This document shows, in pieces, positions 38,888 to 55,499 of a stretch of 64,000 nt of DNA (its first letter is position 1; each line of letters starts with the position of its first letter). Position numbers and translations under genes: made by a program. Under the pieces are notes generated by a model, which saw only the letters and a program-made list of their open reading frames with translations, was not told where the DNA came from and did no database searches. Origin of the DNA: Opitutaceae bacterium TAV5 (GTDB lineage: Bacteria; Verrucomicrobiota; Verrucomicrobiia; Opitutales; Opitutaceae); contig CP007053.1 of assembly GCA_000242935.3 (NCBI GenBank), positions 744,001-808,000 of the forward strand. The letters are read 5' to 3'.

Positions 38888-38910
38888 GGGTTAAAAAGAG
38901 GTCGAACCAG

Positions 38911-39898: not shown

Positions 39899-39962
39899 AG
39901 GTAAAAAAATTGATGCGTAACCAAGTCTCCTCAGCCGAGCTTCGCCGGCTGATTTCCGGTGT

Positions 39963-41026: not shown

Positions 41027-41040
41027 GTTTCACCTCGGTG

Positions 41041-41484
41041 TTACGCTTCGTCCTCCTCAAGCGGTGGGAGCGCGTCATAGCACTCTTGGCACAGCGGAAC
41101 GCCTTCGCTGTCGAAGTGAGTCGAAGGCTTGCCGCATCCCTCGCACATACGTTCGCTGGCATGAGTTGCCGCGCTAGCACGTTGCGGGCGGTCGATTTCT
41201 CCGGCGATCAGAGTCCCGGCCTTGGTTTCCAGGTGGCGGATTCGCTCCTCCTGCGAGAGGAGTACGGTGACGGCATCGGCAAGCAGCAGATGCAGGAATG
41301 CGATTTCGTCCGTGGGACAAAACCCGACTTGCGGATCGTCCCACATGTCCTGGCGCTTCCAGTTTTCGAGGAGGAGATAGCGCTCCAACAGGTAAGGCAT
41401 TGTCTCGCCGGCCTGCTTGGAGAGCAAAGGCCAAAGCGGAGATTGTTCCGCTCGTGTGGTGATGTTTTCGGTTTTGTAATCCAT
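41041..41484 (-). CDS. Hypothetical zinc-binding protein
   Basis: 147 aa. Helical N-terminal two thirds, then a zinc ribbon CEGCGKPSTHFDSEGVPLCQECYD near the end. Function unknown. Confidence 0.6.
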   Translation of the reverse strand: MDYKTENITTRAEQSPLWPLLSKQAGETMPYLLERYLLLENWKRQDMWDDPQVGFCPTDEIAFLHLLLADAVTVLLSQEERIRHLETKAGTLIAGEIDRPQRASAATHASERMCEGCGKPSTHFDSEGVPLCQECYDALPPLEEDEA

Positions 41485-41496
41485 ATAAAATACAGG

Positions 41497-41919
41497 CTAA
41501 CCGTTCGACTCGTGCGAGGCTTTATCCGTACCGTCAGCAGTGCTAGACGGACGACGCTTAATCGTGGGCAGTTCGCGCCAGTAATCGGGTGGCGTGCGTG
41601 GACTGACATCCGATCCACTGAGGCGCCAACCGCGTGACAATCCCCACCAAACAGCCACTCGTAAGGTTTCCTCGCCATTGCGCTTGATCCAACCCACCAG
41701 CACGGGCTTGCCACGGTCCGGGATCACTTCATCCGCGGGATACCACTGGTTTTCGTATCGAAACTGATTGAGTTCGGATTCGAGAGACTTGATCGGGACA
41801 TGCTCGTCAATCATGCGCGCCGTCTTCTGGACCAAGTATTCATGCGCGGCGTATCTGGTGTCGATTCCCCGGAGGAAATCGACGAGCTTTTGTGCGAGTG
41901 GTGGTATCGTGTCGTTCAT
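41497..41919 (-). CDS. DUF551-like phage protein
   Basis: 140 aa. WYPADEVIPDRGKPVLVGWI ... VAVWWGLSRGWRLSGSD ... YWRELP follows the DUF551 pattern found in many early phage proteins of unknown role. Confidence 0.6.
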   Translation of the reverse strand: MNDTIPPLAQKLVDFLRGIDTRYAAHEYLVQKTARMIDEHVPIKSLESELNQFRYENQWYPADEVIPDRGKPVLVGWIKRNGEETLRVAVWWGLSRGWRLSGSDVSPRTPPDYWRELPTIKRRPSSTADGTDKASHESNG

Positions 41920-42372
41920 TTATGTGTCCTTTCTTTCATCCGCCTGAATCTCCCCGATAACCTGCTTGCAGTAGGCGATAAGGCCGCGTCGCAGGTGGCA
42001 CTTCTGGTAGTGCGCGCAAAAGCCCCAAATCCACGGGTTGGCGTCCGAGCATTGCCACAACCAGGCAGTCAGCGTTCCGGATGGGTTATGCGCCTTTCCG
42101 TCCAAATCCTCACAGTAGTTGTCGCGTAAGTACGTCCGGATGATTTCAGCGAGCGTTTCGTAGTTTTCTTCAAATACGTTCCAGTTCCGCCGGGCATCAC
42201 GCAAACACTCGCCGGACCAACGCAGCGCGCATTCCTCGGCGTATGCCTTGCGGTCGCGCCTGACAGGAGAGTTCACCGGCGCGGGCGCAGGCGGGACGCC
42301 GGGGAGAGCGATTGTCAGTTGCCCGGTGCTCGCCGCTTTCATGCACCATTCTTTGGATACGTGGAATTTCAT
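41920..42372 (-). CDS. Hypothetical protein
   Basis: 150 aa from ATG 42372, one base after the upstream stop (TGACATG). Contains GQLTIALPGVPPAPAPVNSP and a Cys/Trp-rich C-terminus (LWQCSDANPWIWGFCAHYQKC). No family recognised. Confidence 0.55.
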   Translation of the reverse strand: MKFHVSKEWCMKAASTGQLTIALPGVPPAPAPVNSPVRRDRKAYAEECALRWSGECLRDARRNWNVFEENYETLAEIIRTYLRDNYCEDLDGKAHNPSGTLTAWLWQCSDANPWIWGFCAHYQKCHLRRGLIAYCKQVIGEIQADERKDT

Positions 42373-42373
42373 G

Positions 42374-42607
42374 TCAACGCATGGACTCCGGCAGTTTTTC
42401 TCGGGGCAACCACACGACCAGGCCGACGTGATCGGGCTTGCCTCCGAGAACGGCGCATTTCGCCAGTTGCGATGCTTTCCCCTTGCTGGTCGCAAAGGTG
42501 ATTTCACCGTCGTTTTTCTTCTGCACGACGCGCACAAGAGATTGCTCAAGATTTTGCATCTGGATACATTCGTCGCCGACGTGTTGAATTAGTTCTGACA
42601 GTTTCAT
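42374..42607 (-). CDS. Hypothetical protein
   Basis: 77 aa. Begins MKLSELIQHVGDECIQMQNL and reads like a compact alpha/beta protein. Overlaps the DUF5131 gene by 4 nt. Function unknown. Confidence 0.6.
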   Translation of the reverse strand: MKLSELIQHVGDECIQMQNLEQSLVRVVQKKNDGEITFATSKGKASQLAKCAVLGGKPDHVGLVVWLPREKLPESMR

Positions 42608-43722
42608 GCTTGCACCTCCGGCCTTCCGTTGTGCTCCACGCCGTCGAGGAGGCGCCCGGCGGCTTTCTTGCCGACGCGCACCATGACCGCGCCGCCATTT
42701 GTCCGGTCGCTGTGGTAGCAGTGGACAGAGCCATCAGGCGCGACAATGAAGGCGGGCGGGCTACTAGCACGGCCCTTGCTTGTATCATATTCCTCACCGG
42801 GTAGCGGTTCGCGCCACTCGCCCTGTTGCTTGAAGAAGAACGGTACGTTGGCGGCAGCGCACTGGTCGCGCAAAGAGCGAGCCCATGCCGGGTGCATCGG
42901 GCGTGCGTGCGGTCCGCTCTCGCCACCGCAGATCACCCAATGGATACCGCGGCGCATGAGAGGGAGTCCGTCCTGTATCCCGTATTGCACCAAGTCAGAC
43001 GGGCGCGATGTCCACTCCTCGCCGCCTGATGGGTCGTGCAGGTGGTTGTATAGATCCACCGGGCCGAGCATCGGCTCGACGCTGAGGAAGCGCACGCGGG
43101 CGGGAATCTTGAGCAACTCCGGAATGCGCTTGTCGGCCATGTCCTGGTTCTCGACCGTCGTGCCGATCCAGACGTTGGCAGGGGGTATGCCGCCGCGCAG
43201 CCAGTCGAAGGCCATCCCCCATGTGTCAGACCAGCCTGCTTCCGACATGCCCCTCTTCCCCGCAAGCCCGCAAGCCTGCCCGATACGCTTTTCCCACAAC
43301 TCCGGCCTCTTCGTGAGCAGCTGCCAGTCGAGATGCTGAGTGCGGCGTATCAGGTCGAGCAGGTCAGTCAGCCACTCGACCGGCACCTCCGGATCGAGCC
43401 AGTCGGCGAGTGAGGCACAAAAGACGCGAGGGCGACGCGGAGCGTCAAGATGCCCTCCGTCTGGCCCAAAAGCCATCTTGAGTTCAGACGTCATGGCTTC
43501 CGCAAATCTAGCCGCCTCGCGATCCCATCTGAGCACCTGCCGCCAGTTGGCCTCGCTCGTGCGTTTGCGCGGCTTGCCTTTGCCGAAGCCCGCCGGCGTC
43601 CAGTGCCGGAATGCATCCTGTGCGGCAGCGTAGCAGTGTGCGCAGCCGGGACTGACTTTTGTGCAGCCAATCCACGGGTTAAAGGTGTGGTCGCACCATT
43701 CGATTTTTGTATATTCAGCCAT
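42604..43722 (-). CDS. DUF5131 (Gp37/Gp68) family protein
   Basis: 372 aa. IEWCDHTFNPWIGCTKVSPGCAHCYA carries the Cys cluster of this radical-SAM-like phage family; FLSVEPMLGPVD and WVICGGESGPHARPM are further signatures. A DNA-repair- or base-modification-like role is suspected for the family. RBS AAAAGGA upstream. Confidence 0.9.
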   Translation of the reverse strand: MAEYTKIEWCDHTFNPWIGCTKVSPGCAHCYAAAQDAFRHWTPAGFGKGKPRKRTSEANWRQVLRWDREAARFAEAMTSELKMAFGPDGGHLDAPRRPRVFCASLADWLDPEVPVEWLTDLLDLIRRTQHLDWQLLTKRPELWEKRIGQACGLAGKRGMSEAGWSDTWGMAFDWLRGGIPPANVWIGTTVENQDMADKRIPELLKIPARVRFLSVEPMLGPVDLYNHLHDPSGGEEWTSRPSDLVQYGIQDGLPLMRRGIHWVICGGESGPHARPMHPAWARSLRDQCAAANVPFFFKQQGEWREPLPGEEYDTSKGRASSPPAFIVAPDGSVHCYHSDRTNGGAVMVRVGKKAAGRLLDGVEHNGRPEVQA

Positions 43723-44080
43723 TGGTTGTATCCTTTTTTTCGATTTTCATCCGCTTGATAAATTCATCAGGGAAAAGCACTTCGCGCTTGCTGACCGGCG
43801 CATCACTCCACCTGTCCGTGATCTCGTCGCCGTATTGGTCTGTGGTTGCGCCGCGCGGCTGGGCTTCGTCGGGCAACTCGACCTCGCATCCGCCCTCATC
43901 GCGCACGTATTGGTTCTCGGCGCGCCAGCACTCGGGGTGCTGGTAGTCATGAAAGAAGTCGCCTTCCCATTTCCCCGCGACGGAGACGGCTGCGCTCCCG
44001 ATCTCGATGCGCTTGCCGCACCAGCGACACCGATGGACGCGGCGGGTTTTGGCAATGGGCGTTGTGCTGGAAAAGCTCAT
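43715..44080 (-). CDS. Hypothetical zinc-finger protein
   Basis: 121 aa. RCRWCGKRIEIGS ... FFHDYQHPECW gives a CxxC...HxxxC site. Acidic rest. Unknown role. Confidence 0.6.
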   Translation of the reverse strand: MSFSSTTPIAKTRRVHRCRWCGKRIEIGSAAVSVAGKWEGDFFHDYQHPECWRAENQYVRDEGGCEVELPDEAQPRGATTDQYGDEITDRWSDAPVSKREVLFPDEFIKRMKIEKKDTTNG

Positions 44081-44418
44081 TGGTTTTTCCCTTCGTATGT
44101 ATCCAAAAGTTCGAGCAGTTGTGTGTATGTGATCATTACAAGCTCCTCTCCGTCGCCGCCCGACTGGTCGCGCGCACTCTCGCGGATGGCTTTCAGCGTC
44201 TCGGGGTGCATCCGGTAGCGGCGACTCGCGGGCGGGAGCATCCGGAGCGCATGCACGGCGTCGTCCATGTGCCCGAGTTGCACGAGATGGTGGATGCGCA
44301 GGACTCTTTTTGTGTCAGGCATGTCGATCACCTGCCCATGCATGAGGCGGTTGACCTCGTCGATGTGCTTGAGAGTCACGCGGCGGTTGTCATGCGGAAT
44401 TGTTACGCGGTCGGTCAT
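44077..44418 (-). CDS. Hypothetical protein
   Basis: 113 aa. Helical, with LRIHHLVQLGHMDDAVHALRML and a C-terminal acidic helix. 4-nt overlaps both sides. No family recognised. Confidence 0.55.
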   Translation of the reverse strand: MTDRVTIPHDNRRVTLKHIDEVNRLMHGQVIDMPDTKRVLRIHHLVQLGHMDDAVHALRMLPPASRRYRMHPETLKAIRESARDQSGGDGEELVMITYTQLLELLDTYEGKNQ

Positions 44419-44810
44419 AGCCCGTTTTCCTCCGCTCTGAGGTCGCGCATGTATTCATCCATCGCCTTCTTGTAGTCGTAGCTTGGGCGGAAATGGATTT
44501 CCTCGATCTGGCCATCAAAGCCTTCTGCATCGAACACGCGGGTTGGCCCCTGGTAGATAGCCGCGAGCGTGCAGGCCGGGCAAAAGTCTGCCGCTTTTTC
44601 AACTTCCTTGACCCTCTCGGCCTCGTTACTCGCATCGACGCCTTCAAGCAGCGCAACCAACTCCGGGCGCGGCCACTGCGACTGGCAAATTGAGCAACGG
44701 CGCTCAGGATTTTTGAAGCATCGCGCCTCGTGATCGCGGATCGCGTCGGCCCGGCAACCGCTTTTGCCGCAATGCTCGCATTTGTAGCGCCAGCATTTAT
44801 ATTTCTTCAT
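44415..44810 (-). CDS. Hypothetical multi-zinc protein
   Basis: 131 aa from ATG 44810. Three Cys clusters: CEHCGKSGC...HEARC, CSICQSQW and FCPACTLA. Likely binds two or more zinc ions; DNA or protein binding. Confidence 0.6.
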   Translation of the reverse strand: MKKYKCWRYKCEHCGKSGCRADAIRDHEARCFKNPERRCSICQSQWPRPELVALLEGVDASNEAERVKEVEKAADFCPACTLAAIYQGPTRVFDAEGFDGQIEEIHFRPSYDYKKAMDEYMRDLRAEENGL

Positions 44811-45202
44811 GCTTCGGCCCTCCATGCGAACGGCAACGGCTCCGGAAGCACCCAAAGGTGCCGGATGTTCGCCACGTTTACCACGTCTCTGTCGGGTGGA
44901 AAAATCTCGACGGCCTGCCGGTCGCCGAAGCCCACTGCTGCCTTGATCCGCTGCAACTCATCCCAGGTGATGCCGTCGCGCCATCTGCCGTCGCGGTCGA
45001 TGTCGGTGCGGTTGACCGACAGCCGGACAACGCCACCCGTCTCGGCGAATGCTTGCACGAGGTAGTGCCGGTTGCGATACGCAGTGATCATGTTCGACTG
45101 TTTTAGCGGCCATTCCGATCGCGGGATCACCACGAAATCCAGGCCATATCTCGCGTTCTCCGATTTGAGCGCGGAGCGTTTTATGCGGAGGTCCGGGCTC
45201 AT
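44807..45202 (-). CDS. DUF7694-like phage protein
   Basis: 131 aa. RWRDGITWDELQRIKAAVGFGD and VVNVANIRHLWVLPEP are the recognisable core of a widespread small phage protein family of unknown function. Confidence 0.7.
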   Translation of the reverse strand: MSPDLRIKRSALKSENARYGLDFVVIPRSEWPLKQSNMITAYRNRHYLVQAFAETGGVVRLSVNRTDIDRDGRWRDGITWDELQRIKAAVGFGDRQAVEIFPPDRDVVNVANIRHLWVLPEPLPFAWRAEA

Positions 45203-45966
45203 GCTGTAATCCTCCTAAACTCGTACCGGAAAACCCACGGATTTGGGCATACGTAGCAGGGTTTACCTCGATTGATGCGTATCTCAGCTACTCCGTCGAA
45301 TGGATAGCTGACGTAATGCGCAGGCTTCCCGTCTTCCCCAAGGACAGGCTCCGGCTTGGCGTTGATACTGTTCCACAGGACGCGAAAAGCCTCAATCGGA
45401 GACTCCTCCCATTCGGCGTCAGAAAAACCTCGATACACAGTCGGCTCGGGGACGTGTGGCAAATGCGGTTCGTCTCCCCACCCCGTGAAATTCTCTTCTT
45501 GAAGCCCCTCGCGGATCGCATCCGCATCCCTGATGTGCTGCAACCGCTCGGCGTGAACGCTGACAATTTCCAGTATCGGCATGAGCCCGCGCAGGTGGTC
45601 CGGGAGGAAGCGACCGGGGCGGGATTTGCCTAGGTATTCCGACTTCGGCTCGCCCATGCCAGAATGCCAGAAGTCGGCGAACGGATGGGTTGCCTCTTCC
45701 AGCGTGATCTCCCTCGGCTTGAGGTGGTCAAACCCCTTGCTTACCGCCCACGTCGCGAGCATGGCGACGCGCTCGCCGGGACGATATGCGGACCGGATGT
45801 CACACCAGCGGTTATCCTCCGACAACTGCCGGGCGAAAAATTCGCCTGCCAAATGACGAATGATGCCGCCGCCCTCTGGCTGCGGATTGATGATCCGCCG
45901 CGTGACCGTCTTGCGGCCCTGCATCACGGCGACCGCCATCGGGGGAGAAAATGGCATCCCTTTCAC
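45199..45966 (-). CDS. ASCH-like phage protein
   Basis: 255 aa. PFSPPMAVAVMQGRKTVTRRI at the start and ILEIVSVHAERLQHIRDADAIREG match phage ASCH/PUA-like proteins. RNA binding is expected for the fold; role in phage unknown. Confidence 0.75.
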   Translation of the reverse strand: MKGMPFSPPMAVAVMQGRKTVTRRIINPQPEGGGIIRHLAGEFFARQLSEDNRWCDIRSAYRPGERVAMLATWAVSKGFDHLKPREITLEEATHPFADFWHSGMGEPKSEYLGKSRPGRFLPDHLRGLMPILEIVSVHAERLQHIRDADAIREGLQEENFTGWGDEPHLPHVPEPTVYRGFSDAEWEESPIEAFRVLWNSINAKPEPVLGEDGKPAHYVSYPFDGVAEIRINRGKPCYVCPNPWVFRYEFRRITA

Positions 45967-46217
45967 TGTGCACCCCCTTCCGTCAGCTTGGCCTTTGCCT
46001 TCTTCCGCTCCTCTTCGCCGATGCTGTAAAGCTGGAAGAAGTCATCGATCGCAGCCGTCTCGCCGCCGTAGTAACGCTTCGCGGCTTCTTCGAGATGCTC
46101 ATACATCTGGCCGCGCATGTAACGCAGCCCCTTGTTCTCGCGGCGCTTCGTAGCCAAGACGCCCTCCCCACTTACCACGAATCCCTTGCGGTCAGGTGCA
46201 AAAATTACCGTGCTCAT
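45963..46217 (-). CDS. Hypothetical protein
   Basis: 84 aa. Basic-helical (RRENKGLRYMRGQMYEHLEEAAKRYYG). 4-nt overlaps. Unknown role. Confidence 0.55.
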   Translation of the reverse strand: MSTVIFAPDRKGFVVSGEGVLATKRRENKGLRYMRGQMYEHLEEAAKRYYGGETAAIDDFFQLYSIGEEERKKAKAKLTEGGAQ

Positions 46218-46591
46218 TGTAGTGCCTCCATCATTTCGACCTTCCGGTTGTGTTCATTTCGCAGGAGCCAAGTACGAAATGATTCGCCCGTGTCCTGCCT
46301 TAGAAATTGCTGATAACGTTCTGCCGAGCGACTCCGCTTCGGCGGCTTCGGTGACTGCAACGCCACCGCGTCAATGCCTGCCTGCGTTACCGAGAAACCG
46401 TGGTCGCCGCCGTAAATTTCCCTCGCGCCGTGATCGATCATCAGTCCGGCGTCCGCGAGGGCCCGGCAGTCAGCGAAATCATCGCTGCCGGGGCCGGTCA
46501 CAAAGCGGTTTCGATACTGTGTCCCCTGCCCGTATTTATCGACGCCGAGCGAGTGCTGGAGGATGTGGAGTTGTTTGGGTGAAAGAGTCAT
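46214..46591 (-). CDS. Hypothetical protein
   Basis: 125 aa from ATG 46591. SPKQLHILQHSLGVDKYGQG and NRFVTGPGSDDFADCRALAD are typical of a small early phage protein that I know only as hypothetical. Confidence 0.6.
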   Translation of the reverse strand: MTLSPKQLHILQHSLGVDKYGQGTQYRNRFVTGPGSDDFADCRALADAGLMIDHGAREIYGGDHGFSVTQAGIDAVALQSPKPPKRSRSAERYQQFLRQDTGESFRTWLLRNEHNRKVEMMEALQ

Positions 46592-46899
46592 ATTTTCCTT
46601 TTTTGTGATCTGCGAATTCCCGCCTGTCTTATTATCTTGGATACCGTCGGTTGCGATGTCCCGGTAGCGATAGCGATTTCCTTTTGGTGGCAACCCTCGC
46701 GCCCCATAGAAACAATCGTTGCCACAACATCTGGCGGAGTGGTGTAGCGGGCCATGCCGCACCGATGGGCGTTTGTCGGCGCGTGGCCTTCGCCGGTGTG
46801 CTCGGCATCCCACACCGCCCGGACCTGCTTTGCGACCATGCCGGGCAGCAAGCCGATCCACTTCGCGCCACAGGTGCAGTAAAGCCGGAGGTCTGTCAC
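46588..46899 (-). CDS. Small HTH protein
   Basis: 103 aa. N-terminal CTCGAKWIG (possible metal site) and a resolvase-type HTH near the end (KEIAIATGTSQPTVSKIIRQAGI). Probable DNA-binding protein. Confidence 0.65.
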   Translation of the reverse strand: MTDLRLYCTCGAKWIGLLPGMVAKQVRAVWDAEHTGEGHAPTNAHRCGMARYTTPPDVVATIVSMGREGCHQKEIAIATGTSQPTVSKIIRQAGIRRSQKRKI

Positions 46900-47318
46900 G
46901 GCTCCTCCCTCCCCGGCATCCGGTGCGGGTTGAGCGCCGCATCGAGGCGACGCGCCAGGTCGTCGGATTTCCCCTTCTCCTTTCCGAGAAGTATCAAGAG
47001 ATTCAAGACTTCTTCGGTAAGAATGCGGAGGGCGATGTCGCGTGACGCTTCCCTGTCGCGTCGATAGTGGTCAAGATCGGTCTGTATTTCGACGATTCGA
47101 TGCGAATCGCCACGGGCAATCGCCCGAGAAAGCGCCATTGCGCAGCCGACGGCATTCGTGAAGTTGGCCGTCTCGGGGTCAACGATCACGACCTTGCGCC
47201 GGGCGAGATTGGTTTTGAGCGCGGAAACGTCGTCAGGCTCGACGCCGACGACGGCGCGGCAAATGTGCGTCTCGGGATCGGTGCCGATGGCGAGGACTTG
47301 GCCTGGTAGGATTGTCAT
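46896..47318 (-). CDS. Hypothetical protein
   Basis: 140 aa. N-terminal beta part and C-terminal helices (ALRILTEEVLNLLILLGKEKG). Unknown role. 4-nt overlaps. Confidence 0.55.
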   Translation of the reverse strand: MTILPGQVLAIGTDPETHICRAVVGVEPDDVSALKTNLARRKVVIVDPETANFTNAVGCAMALSRAIARGDSHRIVEIQTDLDHYRRDREASRDIALRILTEEVLNLLILLGKEKGKSDDLARRLDAALNPHRMPGREEP

Positions 47319-47629
47319 GACGCGTCCTCCCTGTAGCGCACCTTGGTGAACGGCGTTTTGCCGATGTAGCTGTTGCTGGTCGCGACACAGGCGTTATCAC
47401 CCTCTCGCCCGACAAGCACTCCGGGGAAATCCTTATATTCGCCGCCTTGCTGATAGAACGATGCAATTACGCGCGTCCCCGGAGGGAATGCCTCGTCGAA
47501 ACATTGGCATGCTTTGCTGTACCATCCGCTCGCCTGCCCTTCGGCTCTGCGTTCGGCCGCAAGCCATTCATCGCGCTTTTCCAGCGCGAAGCGAAGCTGG
47601 CTGATGGATACGGACTGTTGTGCAGTCAT
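47315..47629 (-). CDS. Hypothetical protein
   Basis: 104 aa. Helical start, then an SH3-like strand region (FPPGTRVIASFYQQGGEYKD). GTAACGAAAGGACAACTAC precedes the ATG and contains both the recurring GTAAC motif and an AAAGGA ribosome site. Confidence 0.6.
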   Translation of the reverse strand: MTAQQSVSISQLRFALEKRDEWLAAERRAEGQASGWYSKACQCFDEAFPPGTRVIASFYQQGGEYKDFPGVLVGREGDNACVATSNSYIGKTPFTKVRYREDAS

Positions 47630-47702
47630 GTAGTTGTCCTTTCGTTACTCGGTTCTTTTTTTCGCTGTCCAAAATCCACGCCATCCGCCCGCTTTGCGCG
47701 GA

Positions 47703-48197
47703 TCAGGGCGATGCAGGCGGCGTCGCGCCCTCGCGGGCGCGTGGATTGAAACTTCCGGTGCCATTTGCGCGCCCTCCGCTTGGTGATGCCGAGCGATTCG
47801 AGGACGGCGCGGGCGTCCTGGCGAGGGCGGCTTCAACTAGCTTCCGCGTTTCGCTGTGCTCGTGACACGGAACGAACGGGTTTGCCATTTGCAGCGCTTC
47901 CCGTAGCTCCACCGCCAGCGCCTCTGTGGCGATTTTCACAGACTCAAGACCCTTGTAGAACTCCCAGGCAATCCCGGGCGTTCCTCCAAGAAGGGAGAAC
48001 GTGTCACGCCATTCGCGCAACTCCGCCACCAGCGCCTCAAGCTGCTCGTATGTCGGCTTCGGCTGCACGGGATGTCTCAACGGTCGCGCAATCGGCCCGT
48101 CGTTTATCAGGCTGGCCTCCTCGCGGCGCTCCTGCTCAATCTCCCGTTCCCGCTGCTCGCGGATTTCGTTGTCTCTCGGTTGTGGATACATAGTCAT
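47703..48197 (-). CDS. Hypothetical coiled-coil protein ending in CRISPR-repeat sequence
   Basis: 164 aa from ATG 48197. Glu/Arg-rich helices (REQREREIEQERREEA, LEALVAELREWRDTF). The last 15 codons (FNPRAREGATPPASP) read antisense through the solitary type I-C repeat at 47722-47752, so the natural C-terminus may have been replaced. Function unknown. Confidence 0.55.
   Translation of the reverse strand: MTMYPQPRDNEIREQREREIEQERREEASLINDGPIARPLRHPVQPKPTYEQLEALVAELREWRDTFSLLGGTPGIAWEFYKGLESVKIATEALAVELREALQMANPFVPCHEHSETRKLVEAALARTPAPSSNRSASPSGGRANGTGSFNPRAREGATPPASP
47722..47752 (+). CRISPR. Solitary type I-C CRISPR repeat (candidate RNA anti-CRISPR)
   Basis: 31 bp that begin GTCGCGCCC, have a 4-nt loop TCGC, then GGGCGCG and end TGGATTGAAAC, the type I-C repeat form with its 3' handle. 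Compared with the Pseudomonas I-C repeat I recall, only the loop differs (4 versus 5 nt). No second copy lies at spacer distance on either side and no cas genes are in the window. It lies on the plus strand, opposite to the operon. Confidence 0.85.
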
Positions 48198-48727
48198 GCT
48201 GCGATTTCTTCTTCGATCATTTCCGGCAGGTTTGCCCTCACCAGCGCCTCTGCCATCGGCGGGCACACGCTGTTTCCGCACATGCGAACCTGTGCCGTTC
48301 CGGTGAGTTTGATTTCGGTCAGTCGGCCGGTCTCGGGATCTTCATCCAGTCCGCGGTCGATGATGTAGTTTTCCGGGAAACCTTGCGCCCGGTAGAGTTC
48401 GCGAGGTCGGAGCATCCGCATGCCGATGTCCACGATCACGTAATCGCCCACGCGGGCAAATTCGCCATCGAATTCGACGCCATGCTCACGAAGGAACGCG
48501 GCGACGAAGCGGGCCGTCTCGGTTTCGCCGGGGATGTGTCCGACGGACTCGGGGCGGTTCACGTAAGTGTGTACCCAATACGCGGGCCGATCCTCGTCGG
48601 TGGCGCGCGTGACCTCGACGTGTCCGCCCGGAAATACGATACGGACGCTGGCGGGTTCGCTGTTCTTCCTGCCGCCCGTGATTTCGACAATGGCAACGTC
48701 GCTGCCGGATGGACGGACTAGCTTCAC
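48194..48727 (-). CDS. C-terminal fragment of m5C DNA methyltransferase
   Basis: 177 aa. Residues about 100-172 carry motif IX-X of cytosine-C5 methyltransferases: RPRELYRAQGFPENYI and RMCGNSVCPPMAEALVRANLP. The SAM site (motif I) and the PCQ nucleophile motif IV are absent and no other piece is in the window. Either a fixed fragment with a binding role, one half of a split enzyme, or a remnant. The first 95 residues may be the target recognition part. Confidence 0.8.
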   Translation of the reverse strand: MKLVRPSGSDVAIVEITGGRKNSEPASVRIVFPGGHVEVTRATDEDRPAYWVHTYVNRPESVGHIPGETETARFVAAFLREHGVEFDGEFARVGDYVIVDIGMRMLRPRELYRAQGFPENYIIDRGLDEDPETGRLTEIKLTGTAQVRMCGNSVCPPMAEALVRANLPEMIEEEIAA

Positions 48728-49338
48728 GCCTGCCCTCCCTTCGCGTCGGCCTTTTCGGCGATGACTTTCCAGTCGGTGCTAGCCTTGGTCTTGAGTGCGG
48801 ACTGAATTTCTTTCGGAATGCCAGCCCACCAGGTGCGGAACGCGGCGGTTCCCTCCGTCGCTTTCTCGGCGCCGTATTGCTCGAACTCGGCCAGCTTGTC
48901 GGGATCGATGGCGGAGGGTTGCGCCTCTGTATTCGAAACCGCTTTCCTCTCGGAGGGCATCGGCTCCACGCGGAACGGCTTCCGCTTCCCGCGCGTCTCG
49001 GTGAGCGCGATTTCAAACGGCCCTTCGAGGTGGCTCGCATGTGAAATTCGGATACCGCCCACCTTGTCGCCGCCGAACTTGATCTCGGGTTCACGATAGA
49101 GCACGAGGCGGCGCCCGACGTAATCCTTACCCTCGCTGCCCCACATCGCCACGAGGACACGGCGCATCGACTTGCCCGGCTTGTAGGGATGGCCGTCGTC
49201 GCCCTCATATCGGATGATTACCGGCTGCTCTCGACTGCCCGCCTCGACCGAGGTAATCCTGATCGTGCGCGGACCGGAGATCAGATCATCGCTGTTCATC
49301 TGATCGGACTTCGGAATGATGGTGCTTGCCAAGTTCAT
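48724..49338 (-). CDS. Phage recombination-region protein, unknown
   Basis: 204 aa. STIIPKSDQMNSDDLISGPRTIRI ... YKPGKSMRRVLVAMWG ... FGGDKVGGIRISHASHL is a conserved protein found beside phage exonuclease genes. A single-strand DNA binding or annealing partner is possible by context. Confidence 0.7.
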   Translation of the reverse strand: MNLASTIIPKSDQMNSDDLISGPRTIRITSVEAGSREQPVIIRYEGDDGHPYKPGKSMRRVLVAMWGSEGKDYVGRRLVLYREPEIKFGGDKVGGIRISHASHLEGPFEIALTETRGKRKPFRVEPMPSERKAVSNTEAQPSAIDPDKLAEFEQYGAEKATEGTAAFRTWWAGIPKEIQSALKTKASTDWKVIAEKADAKGGQA

Positions 49339-49362
49339 AATGTCGTGTGCGTGGGGTTAGTG

Positions 49363-50250
49363 TTAACTGGTGGAGATCATATCGGCGTATCTGTTTGCGA
49401 GATACGCTGGCGGGCACGCTTCGAAGGTTTGGCCGAGGTCGCCCAGGGATGGGAAGCGGTCCTCTTTGACCGCGACGCTCCATTCGCGGACCGCCGCCCG
49501 CTGCTCGATGCGGCCAAAGTTTGCCCACTCGTCGGAGAGCACGACGCGGCGCACGGTGTGGGGCGCGCGGTCCTCCACGAAGACAAAAATGAAGCTCATG
49601 CGCCCTCGATATTCGGGGAGCGTCGCCTCCAGTCCGTCGAGGTAATGCGCTGCCTGGATGTCGTAACGAAACTCGGCGATCTTGTTGTTGATCGCGTGGT
49701 CGCTTATGTCGCTAGTGACCTTCCAATCCCAAACGTCGGCGCTGTGTGCGTCGATCATGAGGCGATCGTATCGCGCCCGGCAATACACCTCGCCGCGTTT
49801 CCATACCGCCGTAACCTCCGATTTGCCGTGAGTGGCAAAGGGGGTATTGTCGATTCCGATAGAAGCCTTCTTGCGGACCGCTTCCACGATGGCGTGAGCC
49901 GAATCTAGGTTTTTTTCCAGCACGGCAACCTTGCCTTGCGCCTCGACGCTGGCTTTCCATGCCTGCGCCGCTCCGCCCTTGAAGCTGTCGTAAGTGGCGA
50001 TCTCGAATTCGTCATCGTTGCCGGAGAGCAACGCATGGACAAGCGAGCCGGTATTCATCGCCGGCGTGGCGACCTTGCCCTTCCCGCCGAAACGCGGGTG
50101 CTCAAGCCAGGCGTGGGCGAGCGATTGGCCGATGATCGTGCGGGCAATGCCACTGGACAGCGATGGAAGCGGGCAAGGATCGCTGTGATAGACCTTCGCG
50201 GGCACGCCGTAGTGCAGGCCAACGTCGAGAGGTTTGGGCGCGTCGCTCAT
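49363..50250 (-). CDS. RecE-like exonuclease (PD-(D/E)xK)
   Basis: 295 aa from ATG 50250. LHYGVPAKVYHSDP-type start, SSGIARTII, then nuclease motif ADVWDWKV (DxK) and QAAHYLDGL (QxxxY), as in RecE/exonuclease VIII C-terminal domains. Degrades one strand for recombination with an annealing protein. Confidence 0.88.
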   Translation of the reverse strand: MSDAPKPLDVGLHYGVPAKVYHSDPCPLPSLSSGIARTIIGQSLAHAWLEHPRFGGKGKVATPAMNTGSLVHALLSGNDDEFEIATYDSFKGGAAQAWKASVEAQGKVAVLEKNLDSAHAIVEAVRKKASIGIDNTPFATHGKSEVTAVWKRGEVYCRARYDRLMIDAHSADVWDWKVTSDISDHAINNKIAEFRYDIQAAHYLDGLEATLPEYRGRMSFIFVFVEDRAPHTVRRVVLSDEWANFGRIEQRAAVREWSVAVKEDRFPSLGDLGQTFEACPPAYLANRYADMISTS

Positions 50251-51596
50251 TTCGCTTCTCCTCCGAGCTTCGCGGCCTGCTCCTCGATCCACTTGGCGAA
50301 CTTCTCGACCTGCGCCGTGATGGTCGCGGCGATGCGCTTACCCTCTTCGCTGGTGGCGGTCGGGATCGGCAGGGAGCGGACGGCATTGGCAAAGCTGGCG
50401 ACCTTCTCGCGGTCGGGCGCCTGCGCGGCTTTGCGGCGCGCCTTCTCCTCTGCCGCCTTTCGCGCCTCCTCGGCCTCGCGCTGCTTGCGCAATTCCGCCT
50501 CTGCACGTTCGGCGCGCTCACGCTCTTCGCGTGCCTTCTCCTCGGCTTCTGCCTTGGCCTTGGCGGCAGCTTCCTTCTCGGCTTTGGCCTTGGCTTCAAG
50601 GGCGGCGCGTTCCTTGCGCGCTTTTTCCTCGGAGGCGCGGGCTGCTTCCTCGGAGGCGCGCTTCTCTTCGGCAGCGATCCGCGCCTTCTCCTCGCGTTCG
50701 GCGTGCTGCCGCTTCTGTGTGTCGAGGAGCGCCACGAACTCGACCTCACTAAAAACGGCGAGGTCCATAAGGCGGGCGTCTGCACCCTGGGGCATATAGG
50801 GCGCGAGCACCTTCACGCGCTCGGCCTGCAACGCATCGCGCTTGCGCTTGGCTTCGGCTTCGGTCTTCTCGCGGGCCTCGCGTTCCTCACGCTCTTTGCG
50901 TTCGCGCTCCTCGGCTTCGCGCTTCAGGCGCTCGTTCTCCTGGCGGATGCGTTCGCTCTCTTCGGCTTCCGCCTTCTCCTTGGCGATGCGATCCGCCTCG
51001 GCCTTTTTCTCGGCTTCGACGCGGGCTTCGTGGGCGGACTTCATGCCGTCGAAAAATTGTTGCCACGACGCATCGTCCATCCCTCCGAGCGGGTAAATCG
51101 ACGCATTGATGACATAGGGGCGCAACGCTTCCTCGCGCTCTACCTTGAGCTTCTCCATGCGAGCGGCCTCGGCGTGCTCGGCAAACTTTTCCATCTCTTC
51201 CAGCTTCTCCTCGACGGGAACGATGGCGTATTTGATAATATTATACACCCCCTGAATCGCATTTCCCCGACGGAGTGAATCCGCCTTGAGCTTCTCGCGC
51301 AGATGGTCGGCATCGATCCGGATGACGCGGAGGGCGAGACGAGCGGCACGAGCCTTTTTGATTTCCGTGACCTGCGTCGCGTCGGTCACGCTGATCTTCT
51401 CGGCGTCGGCGAAGACGGCCTTCGCCTTGGCAAACAGGGGGGCGAACTGGTTGAGCAGACCTTGCGCCGTTTCCGGCTCAAGTCCCACATTCGTCACAGC
51501 GGGGACCAGTTCGGGCGCGATGACCTCGGGAGCGAGGACGGTTTTGACTTCCTCCGGGTCGTTATTTTCGGGCAAAGCAGTGGCTTGAAGTTCCAT
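50247..51596 (-). CDS. Long coiled-coil protein (DUF1351-like)
   Basis: 449 aa. Residues about 180-400 are continuous Glu/Lys/Ala coiled coil interrupted by VLAPYMPQGADARLMDL. N-terminal region (QVTEIKKARAARLALRVIRID) resembles DUF1351 proteins that accompany phage exonucleases. Structural or scaffold role guessed. Confidence 0.7.
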   Translation of the reverse strand: MELQATALPENNDPEEVKTVLAPEVIAPELVPAVTNVGLEPETAQGLLNQFAPLFAKAKAVFADAEKISVTDATQVTEIKKARAARLALRVIRIDADHLREKLKADSLRRGNAIQGVYNIIKYAIVPVEEKLEEMEKFAEHAEAARMEKLKVEREEALRPYVINASIYPLGGMDDASWQQFFDGMKSAHEARVEAEKKAEADRIAKEKAEAEESERIRQENERLKREAEERERKEREEREAREKTEAEAKRKRDALQAERVKVLAPYMPQGADARLMDLAVFSEVEFVALLDTQKRQHAEREEKARIAAEEKRASEEAARASEEKARKERAALEAKAKAEKEAAAKAKAEAEEKAREERERAERAEAELRKQREAEEARKAAEEKARRKAAQAPDREKVASFANAVRSLPIPTATSEEGKRIAATITAQVEKFAKWIEEQAAKLGGEAK

Positions 51597-51656
51597 TTTG
51601 TATCGGGAATTTGGTGGCGCGCTTGCGCCGTGATTAGGTTACTTGTGCGCGGTGGA

Positions 51657-52289
51657 TCAGGCTGCGTTCGCGTCCACCGTGTGGACACCTTCGTCGTCGA
51701 TCTTCACGCCCTTGCCGGTCTGGTCGGTGATCGTGACACTGTCGCAGCCCTTCGGGCGGAGCTTGCTCAGGTTGGCGCGGGTGATTTTCCCGTCGTCGAG
51801 ATCGAAATAAAGCTGGCCGGTTTCTTCCACGATCCCGCGGGCCTGCCGCACTTCGCAGGAGTGTTCGCCGTGCCGGCGGGCAATCTCGTCGAACCAGCCG
51901 AGTTGGCGATCGTGCTTCTTCATCTTAACGACCGGGCGGTGCTGGCCGTCGAGCTTCACGCCGTCGTCGTTGTACTGGATCTCGATGTGATAAAGCTCGT
52001 GATCGAGGAGGGCGTCTTTCTCTTCGCTCGTCATCTTCTCGTATCGGACGTAGTCGATGACGATCTCGACGTCTCCGTTGCCCTTTTTCGCCCGCTCCTT
52101 TTGCGGGACGGCGCGAACGACGGCGTTAGCCGGGTAGCCCTGATGTTTGAGCGCCGCGCCTTCCTTGTCGCTGGCGACCATGAGCAGGTCGATGCGGAGC
52201 TTGTGTTTGTCGATCTCCGGGTAAAAGCGGCGGACCAATTCCGCCACGCGGTCATACGCCTCTTCGGGCGCCTTGCTGTATGTTTTCAT
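51657..52289 (-). CDS. Putative phage metallopeptidase
   Basis: 210 aa from ATG 52289. DALLDHELYHIEIQY contains an HExxH zinc motif (HELYH); VIDYVRYEKMTSEEKDALL and the following RPVVKMKKHD fit the phage metallopeptidase family. Target unknown. Confidence 0.8.
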   Translation of the reverse strand: MKTYSKAPEEAYDRVAELVRRFYPEIDKHKLRIDLLMVASDKEGAALKHQGYPANAVVRAVPQKERAKKGNGDVEIVIDYVRYEKMTSEEKDALLDHELYHIEIQYNDDGVKLDGQHRPVVKMKKHDRQLGWFDEIARRHGEHSCEVRQARGIVEETGQLYFDLDDGKITRANLSKLRPKGCDSVTITDQTGKGVKIDDEGVHTVDANAA

Positions 52290-52336
52290 GATGTGTAGGT
52301 TCTGCGGTTTGTGGGTGAAAAATAGTCTTGGGGCTT

Positions 52337-52359
52337 GCCGGGGTGCCACCCGCCCCGGC
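52337..52359 (-). terminator. Hairpin with CCCCAAG...TTTTT tail
   Basis: GCCGGGG/CCCCGGC arms; on the minus strand followed by AAGCCCCAAGACTATTTTT. Similar tail to the hairpin at 52524, suggesting the same element type. Confidence 0.45.
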
Positions 52360-52523
52360 CCGGGTTTGTTTTTCGTATCCGTATTTTGTTACAACATTGC
52401 TGCTATCCTTTCTCATTGGCTTGTTATGCGGGGCCGCCTGCCTCGCGTTGACTGCCAGCCGTCTGGCCCGTTCGGCGTTTCGATGCCTCATCTAGTTTGC
52501 CGGTTAAAAAGAACTTGGGGTTT

Positions 52524-52550
52524 GCCGCCGCCCGCTAGGCAGGCGGCGGC
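52524..52550 (-). terminator. Hairpin with CCCCAAG...TTTTT tail
   Basis: GCCGCCGCC/GGCGGCGGC, 9-bp perfect stem; on the minus strand followed by AAACCCCAAGTTCTTTTT. Fits a weak intrinsic terminator after the 52598 gene. Confidence 0.5.
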
Positions 52551-52597
52551 TTGCTTTGAGCCCACTCCGCGAAACCCCTTGCGCGGATGGGAAAGGG

Positions 52598-53005
52598 TCA
52601 GGCGACGGGGACGCCGGTGATGGGCGAAGGAGCCACGTGCGGGCGCGGCTTCGGGTCGAGAGCGTCGGCCTCGGCGAGGAGAGCAGCCGCTTCTTTGCGT
52701 TTTTTTTCAGCGATGGTCGCAGGGTCGGCAAGTCGCTCCGCCAGCCCGCGGATGGCGCTCTCAGAGCTAGGGCACGACACCACGCAGGCGTTGTTGATAC
52801 CATGCCCATCCCAATCGGTGTGGGGCTTTTTATCGCCCGCATACTGTTTCGCCTCAATGCCGATTACGGTAATGCCGGGAACCATCTGCTTTGCCTTGAC
52901 CAAGAGGCGCTTCATCGCCTCTTCAATTTCGACGGGCGTGATACTGTTGGCAACGTCCTCGCGGATCGCGGGGGCGGCGGGTGTGGGTTCGGTTGTGGTG
53001 CTCAT
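52598..53005 (-). CDS. Hypothetical protein
   Basis: 135 aa. Helical N-terminal part (PVEIEEAMKRLLVKAKQM), a conserved-looking NNACVVSCPSS, and a Lys/Glu-rich C-terminus. Function unknown. Confidence 0.55.
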   Translation of the reverse strand: MSTTTEPTPAAPAIREDVANSITPVEIEEAMKRLLVKAKQMVPGITVIGIEAKQYAGDKKPHTDWDGHGINNACVVSCPSSESAIRGLAERLADPATIAEKKRKEAAALLAEADALDPKPRPHVAPSPITGVPVA

Positions 53006-53058
53006 AGCATTTTATGTATTTGTTATTGTGATACTAACGGGGAAAGTGTGAGGCGCAT

Positions 53059-53286
53059 TCAGGCGCACGGATCGCCAAAGTCGAAGTCGGTCGGCTCATC
53101 CAGAATCCAGAGCCCGCCGCCGACCTCGACGACGAACGGGTAGCAGTCGCAGGCATCGAGAAGCCGGAGGAACCGCAAAGAGTCGCCGCCGGCGCGCAGA
53201 TAGACCGGGCGAAGGAGCGCGTTCAGTAATTCGCTGATCAGCCAGCGGTTGAAAATGAGAAAGGCTTGCGGGGTCATGGTATTCAT
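53059..53286 (-). CDS. Small hypothetical protein
   Basis: 75 aa. FNRWLISELLNALLRPVYL and FVVEVGGGLWILDEP. GTAACAAAAATTGGATACGC precedes the ATG. Unknown role. Confidence 0.5.
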   Translation of the reverse strand: MNTMTPQAFLIFNRWLISELLNALLRPVYLRAGGDSLRFLRLLDACDCYPFVVEVGGGLWILDEPTDFDFGDPCA

Positions 53287-53315
53287 CGCGTATCCAATTT
53301 TTGTTACATGGTGAA

Positions 53316-53627
53316 TTAGCGGCGAAAGTGCTTCGCCAAAATCGGGTTTCCGCCTGTCATGCGGTAAAGGTCGAGGACGCCTTCGGTCCAGCGGACCTTC
53401 ATCGGACCGGTGGTGCCGGCAGGCTTGAGAAGGTCAGGGACGCGCACGCGCTCCGCGTCGAAAGAGCGAACCGACATGTTCAGAATGCGGGCCGCGCTTT
53501 TCCGGTCATGAAGCCGAAGCGGATCTTTTGCGGGCGGCATGATGGCACCATCTGCGCGCAGCATTTCGACAACATGCAGTGCGATGGACCTCGCCAGTTC
53601 TCCGTATCGCTCTGGCTTGCGGCTCAT
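53316..53627 (-). CDS. HTH protein, excisionase/AlpA-like
   Basis: 103 aa. LHDRKSAARILNMSVRSFDAERV is a MerR/excisionase-type HTH. Strong AAGGAGG ribosome site (about 53631-53637) inside the preceding gene. Candidate Xis or regulator. Confidence 0.6.
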   Translation of the reverse strand: MSRKPERYGELARSIALHVVEMLRADGAIMPPAKDPLRLHDRKSAARILNMSVRSFDAERVRVPDLLKPAGTTGPMKVRWTEGVLDLYRMTGGNPILAKHFRR

Positions 53628-53773
53628 TTATCCTCCTTTCGCAAGTCAATGGTTCCGTAATTCGGGCGGCTTGGCCTCGGCTCGCGTATCAAAAGTGCGA
53701 TGACGCAGGCCATAACGAGCGCACCGACTCCGGCGGCAATGAGATGGGAGGCGATGGGGTCGATGTTCGTCAT
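53624..53773 (-). CDS. Small membrane protein
   Basis: 49 aa from ATG 53773 with ATGA overlaps on both sides. One membrane helix (about 9-29, LIAAGVGALVMACVIALLI) and a polar tail. The overlap pattern supports it as a true gene. Unknown role. Confidence 0.65.
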   Translation of the reverse strand: MTNIDPIASHLIAAGVGALVMACVIALLIREPRPSRPNYGTIDLRKEDK

Positions 53774-54546
53774 GCGGCAATCTCCTTCCCGTGAATTTCG
53801 GCGAGGCGAGCGAGTCCCTTGGCGGTGACAAGCACCTGTTCTCGGATTTGCTCTTCGCCGGCTACGGTGATGGTCGTTACCTTGTGCTCAAGCAGGCCGG
53901 ACTGCACGCGGTCCTGGTAGCCGAGCCACGACTTACCCCCGGCACGGCGGTAAATCCACCGGTTTGCGCTCAACCAGTCGAAGAGCGCCTTGACGCCCAT
54001 TTGCAGCGCCTTGGCCGCATCGGTGACGCAGAGAGTGCCGCCCGTGCGTGTGGCGATACGGTCGAGGGCATCGACCTTGGGGGCCTGCGTTGCCACCGTG
54101 GACTCAAGGGCAAGAACCCGCTCCGTGTAGTTGAGGAGCAGCGACCGCATTTGCGCAGGGTCGTTAAGCACGGCCAGCGGATCGGTGACAAACTGGCGCT
54201 GCGCCTTCGCCATCTCCCAAAACATTTTTACGAGCGCCTTCTTGAACGAACGCACCACATCGCTGTTGCGCATGTAGGTGAGCAAGAGCGTTGCCTGTTG
54301 CTCGTTGAGGAGGGCGACCTCGCGGTTTTGCGTTCCGCCGGCGGTCGCAAAGGGTCGCATTTCAAATGCGACCCCTCCGAACTCCTCAAGGTCGGTGAGA
54401 TAGTTGCGGGCGAGCTGAAGAACGGCACGATGTTCGTTTTGCGTGCCCTCGGCAATCGCGAGAGATGTGGTCACGGCCTGTCCGTCTTTCAGGAAAACGA
54501 GCGGGTTGCCGTCGGTCTGCATGTGGGGGGTGAGTGTCTGGCTCAT
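53770..54546 (-). CDS. Rha/KilAC-type antirepressor
   Basis: 258 aa. N-terminal Rha-like domain (TTSLAIAEGTQNEHRAVLQLARNY ... GGTQNREVALLNEQQATLLLTYMRNS) and C-terminal KilA-C domain (TDAAKALQMGVKALFDWLSANRWIYRR ... VTAKGLARLAEI). Expected to counteract the repressor during lytic growth. Confidence 0.9.
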   Translation of the reverse strand: MSQTLTPHMQTDGNPLVFLKDGQAVTTSLAIAEGTQNEHRAVLQLARNYLTDLEEFGGVAFEMRPFATAGGTQNREVALLNEQQATLLLTYMRNSDVVRSFKKALVKMFWEMAKAQRQFVTDPLAVLNDPAQMRSLLLNYTERVLALESTVATQAPKVDALDRIATRTGGTLCVTDAAKALQMGVKALFDWLSANRWIYRRAGGKSWLGYQDRVQSGLLEHKVTTITVAGEEQIREQVLVTAKGLARLAEIHGKEIAA

Positions 54547-54770
54547 ACGGTTTTCCTTTCTTGGGTTCGCGGGGTTGGGGCTGAAATTTCGGCTCCGATA
54601 GGGTCGTGTCGGATGTCAGAGCCGATCTTCACGTCGTGCCCCTTCTTCTTGAGCGCCTTCGCCAACTGGCGGGCGAGACCGTCCATGTCGCGGGCAGGGG
54701 GCGGAGGACGCATACGGTCACGCAAGGGTGGCTGCATGCGGTTGGAGTCGCTGGCGGAAGGGTGCTTCAT
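54543..54770 (-). CDS. Small protein with DMDGLARxLAxALK motif
   Basis: 75 aa. Basic/Pro-rich; RDMDGLARQLAKALKKKGHDVKIG repeats the motif of the protein at 23002-23175. Unknown role. Confidence 0.55.
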   Translation of the reverse strand: MKHPSASDSNRMQPPLRDRMRPPPPARDMDGLARQLAKALKKKGHDVKIGSDIRHDPIGAEISAPTPRTQERKTV

Positions 54771-55138
54771 GACGCACCTCCTTTCAGTCTCGCCAACCGC
54801 TCCTTTGCCTCGGCCAGCTCAATGCGCAGGCGGTCAATGCGGTCAGTGGTATTGGCTATATCGTTCTCTCGAAAGGACGTAGATTGCGCCAAATCGAGCA
54901 CCGCCTCTCCGATGGAATCTCCTGAGCCTTCGCGGGAATTATATCTTCCTCCGACGATCTCGACCGCAATGGAGGAGTAACCAGATCGGCTTGCCTCACC
55001 TGTTTTGCTGATGCGTGCGTGGAATTCCACCTCAACTGATATCGGGCCAAACGTATCACGCGCTTTGGCCGCCACCTTCTTCATCTCTTGGATGATGCAG
55101 GCGGGAAGAGGGCATGGTGTATGTGTCTGCTTGCTCAT
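54767..55138 (-). CDS. Hypothetical early protein
   Basis: 123 aa. Beta strands around ISVEVEFHARISKTG and a C-terminal coiled coil (DRIDRLRIELAEAKERLARL). Unknown role. Confidence 0.55.
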   Translation of the reverse strand: MSKQTHTPCPLPACIIQEMKKVAAKARDTFGPISVEVEFHARISKTGEASRSGYSSIAVEIVGGRYNSREGSGDSIGEAVLDLAQSTSFRENDIANTTDRIDRLRIELAEAKERLARLKGGAS

Positions 55139-55434: not shown

Positions 55435-55456
55435 GACCAGACGGAAAACAGATGAA

Positions 55457-55489: not shown

Positions 55490-55499
55490 ATATAAAACA

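What the first reader, a model, noticed from the sequence alone, without database searches (positions are those of the whole stretch)
47722..47752. Solitary type I-C CRISPR repeat inside a prophage: candidate RNA-based anti-CRISPR
The 31-bp unit keeps every stem and handle base of the I-C repeat I recall (GTCGCGCCC ... GGGCGCG ... TGGATTGAAAC), with only the loop shortened. It is alone: no second unit at about 65 bp on either side. Solitary repeat units in phages are known to be transcribed and to trap Cas proteins (RNA anti-CRISPRs). It also overwrites the 3' end of a phage gene on the other strand, which suggests insertion and selection for the repeat rather than the peptide.
Basis: partly seen in the sequence, partly recalled or inferred. 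Interest (0 to 1): 0.92.

Follow-up and report, generated by a model that had tools for sequence, protein, structure and literature searches.

The report
Captured CRISPR repeat in a prophage
A virus dormant in a bacterial genome carries one intact copy of a bacterial immune-system repeat, lodged in a deletion scar in one of its gene clusters; it could serve as an RNA decoy against that immune system, but nothing yet shows that it is switched on.

Summary
Window 47722-47752 (+) is one intact type I-C CRISPR repeat: 7-bp stem, 4-nt loop, complete TGGATTGAAAC handle. It is solitary and lies in a tailed-phage prophage. Its 31 letters equal the repeat that follows cas4, a type I-C cas1 and cas2 on an Acidiferrobacteraceae contig. 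The nearest family array repeat (G245) differs by one loop base and one substitution. The "shortened loop" is natural: 2 of 20 recovered family arrays have 31-nt repeats. The host has types V-B and I-G; Cas5d was not found in it, but is present in 29 of 200 family genomes.

New here: related phage DNA shows the repeat at a rearrangement junction. On one side, homology to a related prophage stops at the repeat edge (strong). On the other, similarity to a phage gene end starts at the edge (weaker, one hit). About 0.9 kb present in the relative is missing.

An RNA anti-CRISPR (Racr) role is possible but unproven: the unit is antisense to its operon, has no evident promoter or terminator, and interior solitary I-C units were also seen in two chromosomes outside recognised phage genes, one replacing the end of a toxin gene. 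Verdict: new member of a known kind (solitary repeat unit, candidate Racr); an inert scar is a strong rival.

The parts
47722..47752 (+). Solitary type I-C CRISPR repeat unit (31 nt): 7-bp stem, UCGC loop, 11-nt 5'-handle sequence UGGAUUGAAAC
   Evidence: Exact sequence; fold -14.7 kcal/mol; identical to an array repeat behind cas4, type I-C cas1 and cas2; 30 of 32 aligned positions equal to the G245 array repeat
47742..47752 (+). Sequence of the 11-nt crRNA 5' handle that Cas5d would leave
   Evidence: Handle length from PMC5965380 (passages); sequence intact
47753..47778 (-). Ribosome-binding site and first four codons (ATG GCA CCG GAA) of a small phage early gene; homology to the relative stops at the repeat edge (to within one shared base)
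   Evidence: 24 of 26 bases identical to L332 1179-1204; 1 of 400 random prophage 26-mers reaches 24 or more
47689..47721 (-). Short coding-like remnant (AACIALIRAKR) starting at the other edge of the repeat
   Evidence: 28 of 33 bases identical to the C-terminal coding end of an ORF in L333; 2 of 10 inside the repeat. Found through an exact 20-mer scan; 8 of 13 identical outside that 20-mer, so weaker evidence
47626..47690 (-). 3' end of a small phage gene (...DGVDFGQRKKEPSNERTTT*), ending in the ATGA overlap with the next gene
   Evidence: 62 of 65 bases identical to L332 2122-2186 (one search aligns 62 of 63); frame read
47703..48197 (-). ORF that runs antisense through the repeat; its first ~130 codons are a real gene, the last ~30 mostly score as non-coding
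   Evidence: Homology to the same-genus gene covers aa 2-131 only; sliding coding score negative in this frame past about 47815
47315..47629 (-). Next gene of the early operon (unknown function), starts at the ATGA overlap
   Evidence: no family match
12401..60400 (.). Approximate extent of the prophage (tRNA-Met side to integrase)
   Evidence: PHROGs, tRNA; ends not mapped precisely

Best explanation
The 31-bp unit is a genuine type I-C CRISPR repeat captured from some bacterial I-C array and joined into a deletion scar in the prophage's early gene cluster (capture: supported by the edges; source array: unknown). It keeps everything Cas5d needs: hairpin, cleavage position and 11-nt handle. 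Inferred working: in a host with a type I-C system, an RNA read from the + strand would be bound and cut by Cas5d; the hairpin half holds Cas5d, and the handle half, followed by phage sequence instead of a spacer, seeds a Cas5-Cas7-Cas8 complex without a useful guide. That would titrate Cas proteins away from real crRNAs, as Racrs do. Transcription, binding and inhibition are not shown; in the present host, where Cas5d was not found, the unit would be idle.
For: Intact repeat, fold equal to array repeats; identical to a real I-C array repeat; closest family array repeat differs by one loop base and one substitution (G245). Homology breaks at its edges: strong on the 47753 side, weaker on the 47721 side. 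With a 431-bp query over 252 family genomes, the matches that recur array-like within one genome lie at the repeat (capped list). I-C occurs in 29 of 200 family genomes. As a class, solitary I-C units in IMG/VR keep the variable stem pair: 59 Watson-Crick, 5 G-U, 1 mismatch of 65. They lie between ORFs in 34 of 65 cases against 8.8% for random positions (ORFs of 60 aa or more; 41, 44 and 50 of 65 against 13.9, 18.6 and 23.8% at 80, 100 and 120 aa). Terminator-like hairpins follow 11 of 61 (4.9 expected; 6 in the opposite-strand control). RacrIC1, a prophage I-C unit, inhibits I-C interference (PMC10651486, section read).
Against: No promoter-like site and no nearby terminator-like site for a + transcript. 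Genes on both sides are on the other strand; of the 34 intergenic class members 8 are antisense to both neighbours. No Cas5d found in the host. No anti-CRISPR gene was recognised among the neighbours scanned. No relative was found to keep the unit: 0 exact hits in IMG/VR, none in L332, L333 or L106, none in 80 loci around relatives of a neighbouring gene. Solitary I-C units also occur in chromosomes outside recognised phage genes. Upstream promoter scores of the IMG/VR class are near random (mean percentile 0.56; 12 of 61 at or above the 90th percentile, about 6 expected).
Confidence: 0.45

Rival explanations
1. Inert scar: the repeat was captured by chance when the phage early region was deleted and rejoined, and has no function; it is intact only because the event is recent.
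For: It sits in a rearrangement scar: relative to L332 about 917 bp (L332 1205-2121) are replaced by the repeat plus about 33 bp. No promoter or terminator, antisense to the operon. No Cas5d found in the host. Solitary units in two chromosomes, one of them replacing the end of a toxin gene. No conservation of the unit found.
Against: All 31 bases still match a working array repeat. Class-wide placement between genes suggests that many such units are kept for a reason.
Confidence: 0.4
2. Single-repeat guide RNA: the handle plus the phage DNA behind it acts as a crRNA in an I-C host and turns Cascade on related phages that have an uninterrupted copy (superinfection exclusion).
For: The DNA behind the handle is phage sequence shared in part with L332. 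Mini-arrays with such a role are known (PMC11656645 and PMC8616872, passages).
Against: There is no second repeat to form the 3' end. The shared stretch is only 26 nt with 2 mismatches; an I-C PAM beside it was not tested.
Confidence: 0.06
3. DNA-level function: a recombination or integration handle between phage and host I-C arrays.
For: Proposed for solitary units in general (PMC8616872, passage; PMC10651486 discussion).
Against: The prophage carries an integrase (phrog_1), is not in an I-C array, and the I-C pattern finds no other copy in the host.
Confidence: 0.03
4. Ordinary coding DNA that resembles a repeat by chance.
For: An ORF is open through it on the other strand, and the 9 codons inside the repeat score slightly positive in that frame (2.3 bits).
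Against: 31 of 31 identity to a real I-C array repeat; homology breaks at its edges; the stretches of that ORF on both sides of the repeat score as non-coding.
Confidence: 0.01

Closest known systems
RacrIC1 (type I-C RNA anti-CRISPR, Bifidobacterium pseudocatenulatum prophage; PMC10651486)
   Same: Solitary I-C repeat unit in a prophage
   Different: RacrIC1 lies 11 nt behind acrIC5 in one transcript and was shown to inhibit; here the unit is antisense to its operon, has no recognised acr neighbour, no visible promoter, and no Cas5d was found in the host. The RacrIC1 sequence itself was not compared
Solitary repeat units (SRUs) of phages (Faure et al. 2019, cited in the papers seen; 2,103 viral SRUs in PMC10651486)
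   Same: Single repeat, not part of an array, no cas genes beside it
   Different: It overlaps an open frame, so a search that masks predicted ORFs, as SRUFinder does, could miss it; its edges can be placed against related phage DNA
Type I-C CRISPR array repeat (Acidiferrobacteraceae contig L222; G245 of the same family)
   Same: 31 of 31 bases equal to L222; one loop deletion and one substitution from G245
   Different: One copy, no spacer-repeat periodicity, no cas genes recognised beside it
Viral CRISPR mini-arrays
   Same: Repeat carried by a phage
   Different: Mini-arrays have two repeats (one may be truncated) around a spacer; here no second repeat was found within 110 bp

Membership tests
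Type I-C CRISPR repeat | Sequence equal or near-equal to repeats of I-C arrays | tested here: met
   Identical to the repeat behind cas4, Cas1c (TIGR03640, 507 bits, cut-off 385) and cas2 in L222; 30 of 32 aligned positions with the G245 array
Type I-C CRISPR repeat | Hairpin with a 3' handle ending GATTGAAAC | tested here: met
Solitary repeat unit (SRU) | No second full or partial repeat within 100 bp | tested here: met
Solitary repeat unit (SRU) | On a virus or provirus | tested here: met
Solitary repeat unit (SRU) | Outside predicted genes (SRUFinder criterion) | tested here: inconclusive
   Open frame through it, but the frame scores as non-coding on both flanks of the unit; SRUFinder itself was not run
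RNA anti-CRISPR (Racr) | Transcribed (candidates were chosen with a promoter within 250 bp upstream) | tested here: inconclusive
   No promoter-like site; best site in 150 bp upstream at the 80th percentile of random stretches. Absence of a consensus match is weak evidence; transcription itself was not testable
RNA anti-CRISPR (Racr) | Matching CRISPR-Cas subtype in the host (frequent, not absolute: 82.9% of 170 prophage SRUs in PMC10651486) | tested here: not met
   Host: V-B and I-G; no Cas5d found; other I-C cas genes were not searched for
RNA anti-CRISPR (Racr) | Inhibits CRISPR interference | not testable with these tools
   -
CRISPR mini-array | Two repeats flanking a spacer | tested here: not met

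The most novel reading that the evidence does not exclude
Type I-C repeats are scattered as single units into phage and chromosomal operons by a capture process of their own: they appear exactly at rearrangement junctions, replacing gene ends, as here and in a relative where a toxin's homology ends on the very base before the repeat and the antidote gene follows at once. RNA anti-CRISPRs are then the subset of these captured units that gained a transcript. The window unit would be a unit caught between capture and recruitment.
Probability: 0.25. Interest if true: 0.75.

Novelty: new member of a known kind. Interest (0 to 1): 0.42.

Why it matters
How phages come to own single CRISPR repeats is, as far as the papers seen here go, not explained. 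This case places the edges of one unit against related phage DNA and shows it filling a deletion junction, so it bears on the origin of RNA anti-CRISPRs. It also warns that a perfect solitary repeat is not by itself proof of anti-CRISPR function, because such units also occur in chromosomal operons.

Tried and rejected
Chance or coding resemblance: rejected. Fossil of a longer array: rejected, the flanks show no residual repeat. Unit derived from the host's own arrays: rejected, those are V-B and I-G repeats of other sequence. Phage targeted by known spacers: of 556 spacers extracted the only one within 30% mismatches has 10 in 35 (this set lost the large I-G array by an overwrite); none of the 136 host spacers retested matches the window with 9 or fewer mismatches (a shared 10-mer was required). 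The 33 bp beside the repeat as a CRISPR spacer: disfavoured, it resembles the coding end of a phage ORF. An apparent frame-2 gene through the repeat turned out to hold the end of another small gene once L332 was found. A family-wide search for that tail gave only weak hits, E 0.0015 or worse outside the own genome. Flanking duplication in the window: none. Anti-CRISPR neighbours: none in PHROGs or NCBIfam (ten ORFs each). Relatives of the neighbouring gene in IMG/VR (80 kept of at least 596) hold no I-C unit. Two further IMG/VR queries found no relative. One HTH neighbour (46588-46899) has a weak Cbp1 repeat-binding hit, 18 bits against a cut-off of 140: taken as generic HTH.

Limits: the IMG/VR scan returned 100 stretches and may be capped, so class counts are a sample. 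From 189 matches, 110 with a second unit nearby were dropped, then 9 within 60 bp of a contig end and 5 duplicates, leaving 65. ORF calls in that class are crude (a first version with ORFs of 40 aa gave 23 of 66 intergenic against 5.4%, window included), and the promoter matrix is recalled. In the phylum survey only genomes with a single copy, plus G337 and G308, were looked at closely; genomes with arrays may hold further solitary units. Family arrays: one Cas5d locus of 30 (G119) was not fetched; G245 was added from the pattern search.

Full report
OBSERVATION. With up to three mismatches the unit occurs once in the window and never in 100 shuffles. A loop-tolerant I-C pattern finds one copy in the whole genome. 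No partial second unit stands out within 110 bp. As RNA it folds into a 7-bp stem with a 4-nt loop, -14.7 kcal/mol; two family array repeats give -14.0 and -14.6 with nearly the same shape. Rfam's CRISPR-DR9 matches below its curated cut-off.

IT IS A TRUE I-C REPEAT. In the genome collection the exact 31-mer occurs once, as the last 31 bases of a contig of an Acidiferrobacteraceae bacterium. There it lies 175 bp behind cas4, cas1 and cas2; the Cas1 passes the type I-C model (TIGR03640, 507 bits, cut-off 385), and Cas4 and Cas2 pass theirs. The contig ends there, so further repeats cannot be seen. From 30 family loci (29 around Cas5d hits, one, G245, around a pattern hit) I recovered 20 arrays with I-C-type repeats. 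Two have 31-nt repeats and two have the T in TGGATTGAAAC; the nearest (G245) aligns at 30 of 32 positions. A 431-bp query across 252 family genomes gives matches that recur array-like at the repeat; other matches are scattered and short (capped list). The shortened loop is thus ordinary.

HOST. The genome is 7,417,673 bases in two contigs. It has a type V-B locus (Cas12b, 1041 bits; Cas4-Cas1 fusion; 24 repeats) and a type I-G locus (Cas3g; Cas4-Cas1; 114 repeats). Cas5d was not found. From size and Cas12b I would guess Opitutaceae bacterium TAV5, but that is recall and was not tested. Cas5d is present in 29 of 200 family genomes, 27 over the cut-off, so phages of this family can meet I-C hosts.

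CONTEXT. Terminase, portal, head, tail, baseplate, anti-repressor, repressor-like and integrase genes confirm a prophage from about 12.4 to 60.4 kb. The unit lies in a run of minus-strand early genes. Of the 12 gene junctions between 43715 and 50292 (ORFs, taking the gene that starts at 48197), eight overlap by exactly 4 bp, two by 47-49 bp, one has a 24-bp gap, and the repeat junction has the largest gap, 73 bp.

THE SCAR. The ORF 47703-48197 is a real gene for about 130 codons (same-genus homologue, aa 2-131, E 1.3e-10). That homologue continues for more than 100 further residues without a repeat, and sliding codon scores turn negative in this frame past about 47815. A related prophage in IMG/VR, L332, helps with the rest. 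Read on the minus strand, the window holds: the first gene up to about 47809; 30 unassigned bases; a 26-base block, 24 of 26 identical to L332, that carries a ribosome-binding site and the codons ATG GCA CCG GAA; the repeat; 33 bases, 28 of 33 identical to the coding end of an ORF in the viral contig L333; and a 65-base tail, 62 of 65 identical to another L332 gene, ending in the ATGA overlap. The 26-base block stops at one edge of the repeat, to within one shared base. The L333 similarity starts at the other edge (2 of 10 identical inside the repeat), but it came from an exact 20-mer scan and is 8 of 13 outside that 20-mer, so this edge is less sure. In L332 the two L332 blocks are about 917 bp apart, and L332 holds no repeat (best ungapped match 19 of 31). 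L332 is a relative, not an ancestor, so the order of deletion and insertion cannot be told.

THE CLASS. A degenerate I-C pattern returned 100 stretches of IMG/VR, perhaps capped; 79 of 189 matches have no neighbour. Of 65 unique units away from contig ends, the free stem pair is Watson-Crick in 59, G-U in 5 and broken in 1; 34 of 65 lie between ORFs of 60 aa or more, against 8.8% at random. Such pairing is also expected of any fresh copy of an array repeat, so it does not by itself show selection in phages. Of the 34, 15 run with both neighbours and 8 against both. Terminator-like sites follow 11 of 61 (4.9 expected; 6 in the opposite-strand control), but promoter scores upstream are near random. 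The class may be functional on average; the window unit lacks the class's better signs.

NOT ONLY PHAGES. In 387 genomes of the phylum, 48 match the pattern and seven have a single copy. Four of those seven (G365, G373, G551, G607) lie within about 100 bp of contig ends, as broken arrays would. The three interior ones are the window, G385 and G095. In G385 the unit lies among cell genes (PTS EIIA, an ArsR-type regulator, a redox enzyme, aconitase). In G095 it follows a RelE/ParE-family toxin ORF (TIGR02683, 73 bits, cut-off 62.9) whose match covers residues 3-65 and model positions 2-64 of 95: the toxin's homology ends on the base before the repeat, the repeat encodes the last residues, and an antidote gene (PF21716) follows at once. 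Its wider neighbours by Pfam are cell genes, among them a YhcG-type nuclease; PHROGs was not run on these two loci. Three cases are few, and genomes with arrays were not searched for extra solitary units.

WORKING. Type I-C uses Cas5d for cleavage, leaving an 11-nt 5' handle and a 21-nt 3' handle with the hairpin, on which one Cas5d stays (PMC5965380, passages). The unit has both parts, so a + strand RNA should bind and titrate Cas5d and could seed a decoy complex. This follows from family knowledge and from RacrIC1 (PMC10651486: abstract, outline and passages; sections on acr co-location, other Racrs and discussion). It is not shown here. I put an active or latent Racr at 0.45 and an inert scar at 0.40.

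KNOWN OR NEW. Solitary units and Racrs are in print, I-C included. I found no report of this unit in the searches (listings; of the papers listed I looked into PMC10651486, PMC11656645, PMC5965380 and PMC8616872, the last three in passages only, and one listed paper that names TAV5, PMC6920513, was not opened; the supplementary tables of PMC10651486 were not open to me). SRUFinder masks ORFs predicted with at least 80% confidence, so this one could have been missed. The member appears new; the kind is known.

Noticed in passing
L284 1500-1531 / L331 around 7273-7304 (G095): A solitary I-C repeat (ATCGCGCCCTACGCGGGCGCGTGGATTGAAAC) replaces the C-terminal third of a RelE/ParE-family toxin gene (TIGR02683), encoding its last residues, and is followed directly by an HI1420-type antidote gene (PF21716); wider neighbours are cell genes by Pfam.
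   Followed up: partly
L024 (unit at 5724 on the reverse strand) and L090 (unit at 4858): In 2 of 65 viral solitary units the repeat is flanked by a direct duplication of spacer size (35 bp with 1 mismatch; 33 bp exact); 6 of 3250 random positions have one of 28 bp or more. In L024 TTC (the I-C PAM as recalled) stands next to the first copy. Either an insertion with target duplication, or an assembly artefact from a protospacer shared with a host array.
   Followed up: partly
window 12401-12518: A tRNA-Met and an abiF RNA (Rfam RF03085, 51.8 bits) lie side by side near the tail-gene end of the prophage, a possible attachment side with an abortive-infection-linked RNA.
   Followed up: no
window 48194-48727: This early gene matches the C-terminal part of DNA cytosine methyltransferases (residues 95-171 on 325-392 of a 400-position profile); the catalytic N-terminal part is not in the ORF.
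   Followed up: no
G000:C1:725500-734000 and 5097500-5121000: The host carries a type V-B Cas12b system and a type I-G system with 114 repeats; none of their 136 extracted spacers matches the window with 9 or fewer mismatches.
   Followed up: yes
window 40121-41026: Phosphoadenosine phosphosulfate reductase-like gene in the prophage early region (phrog_424, E 4.5e-35).
   Followed up: no
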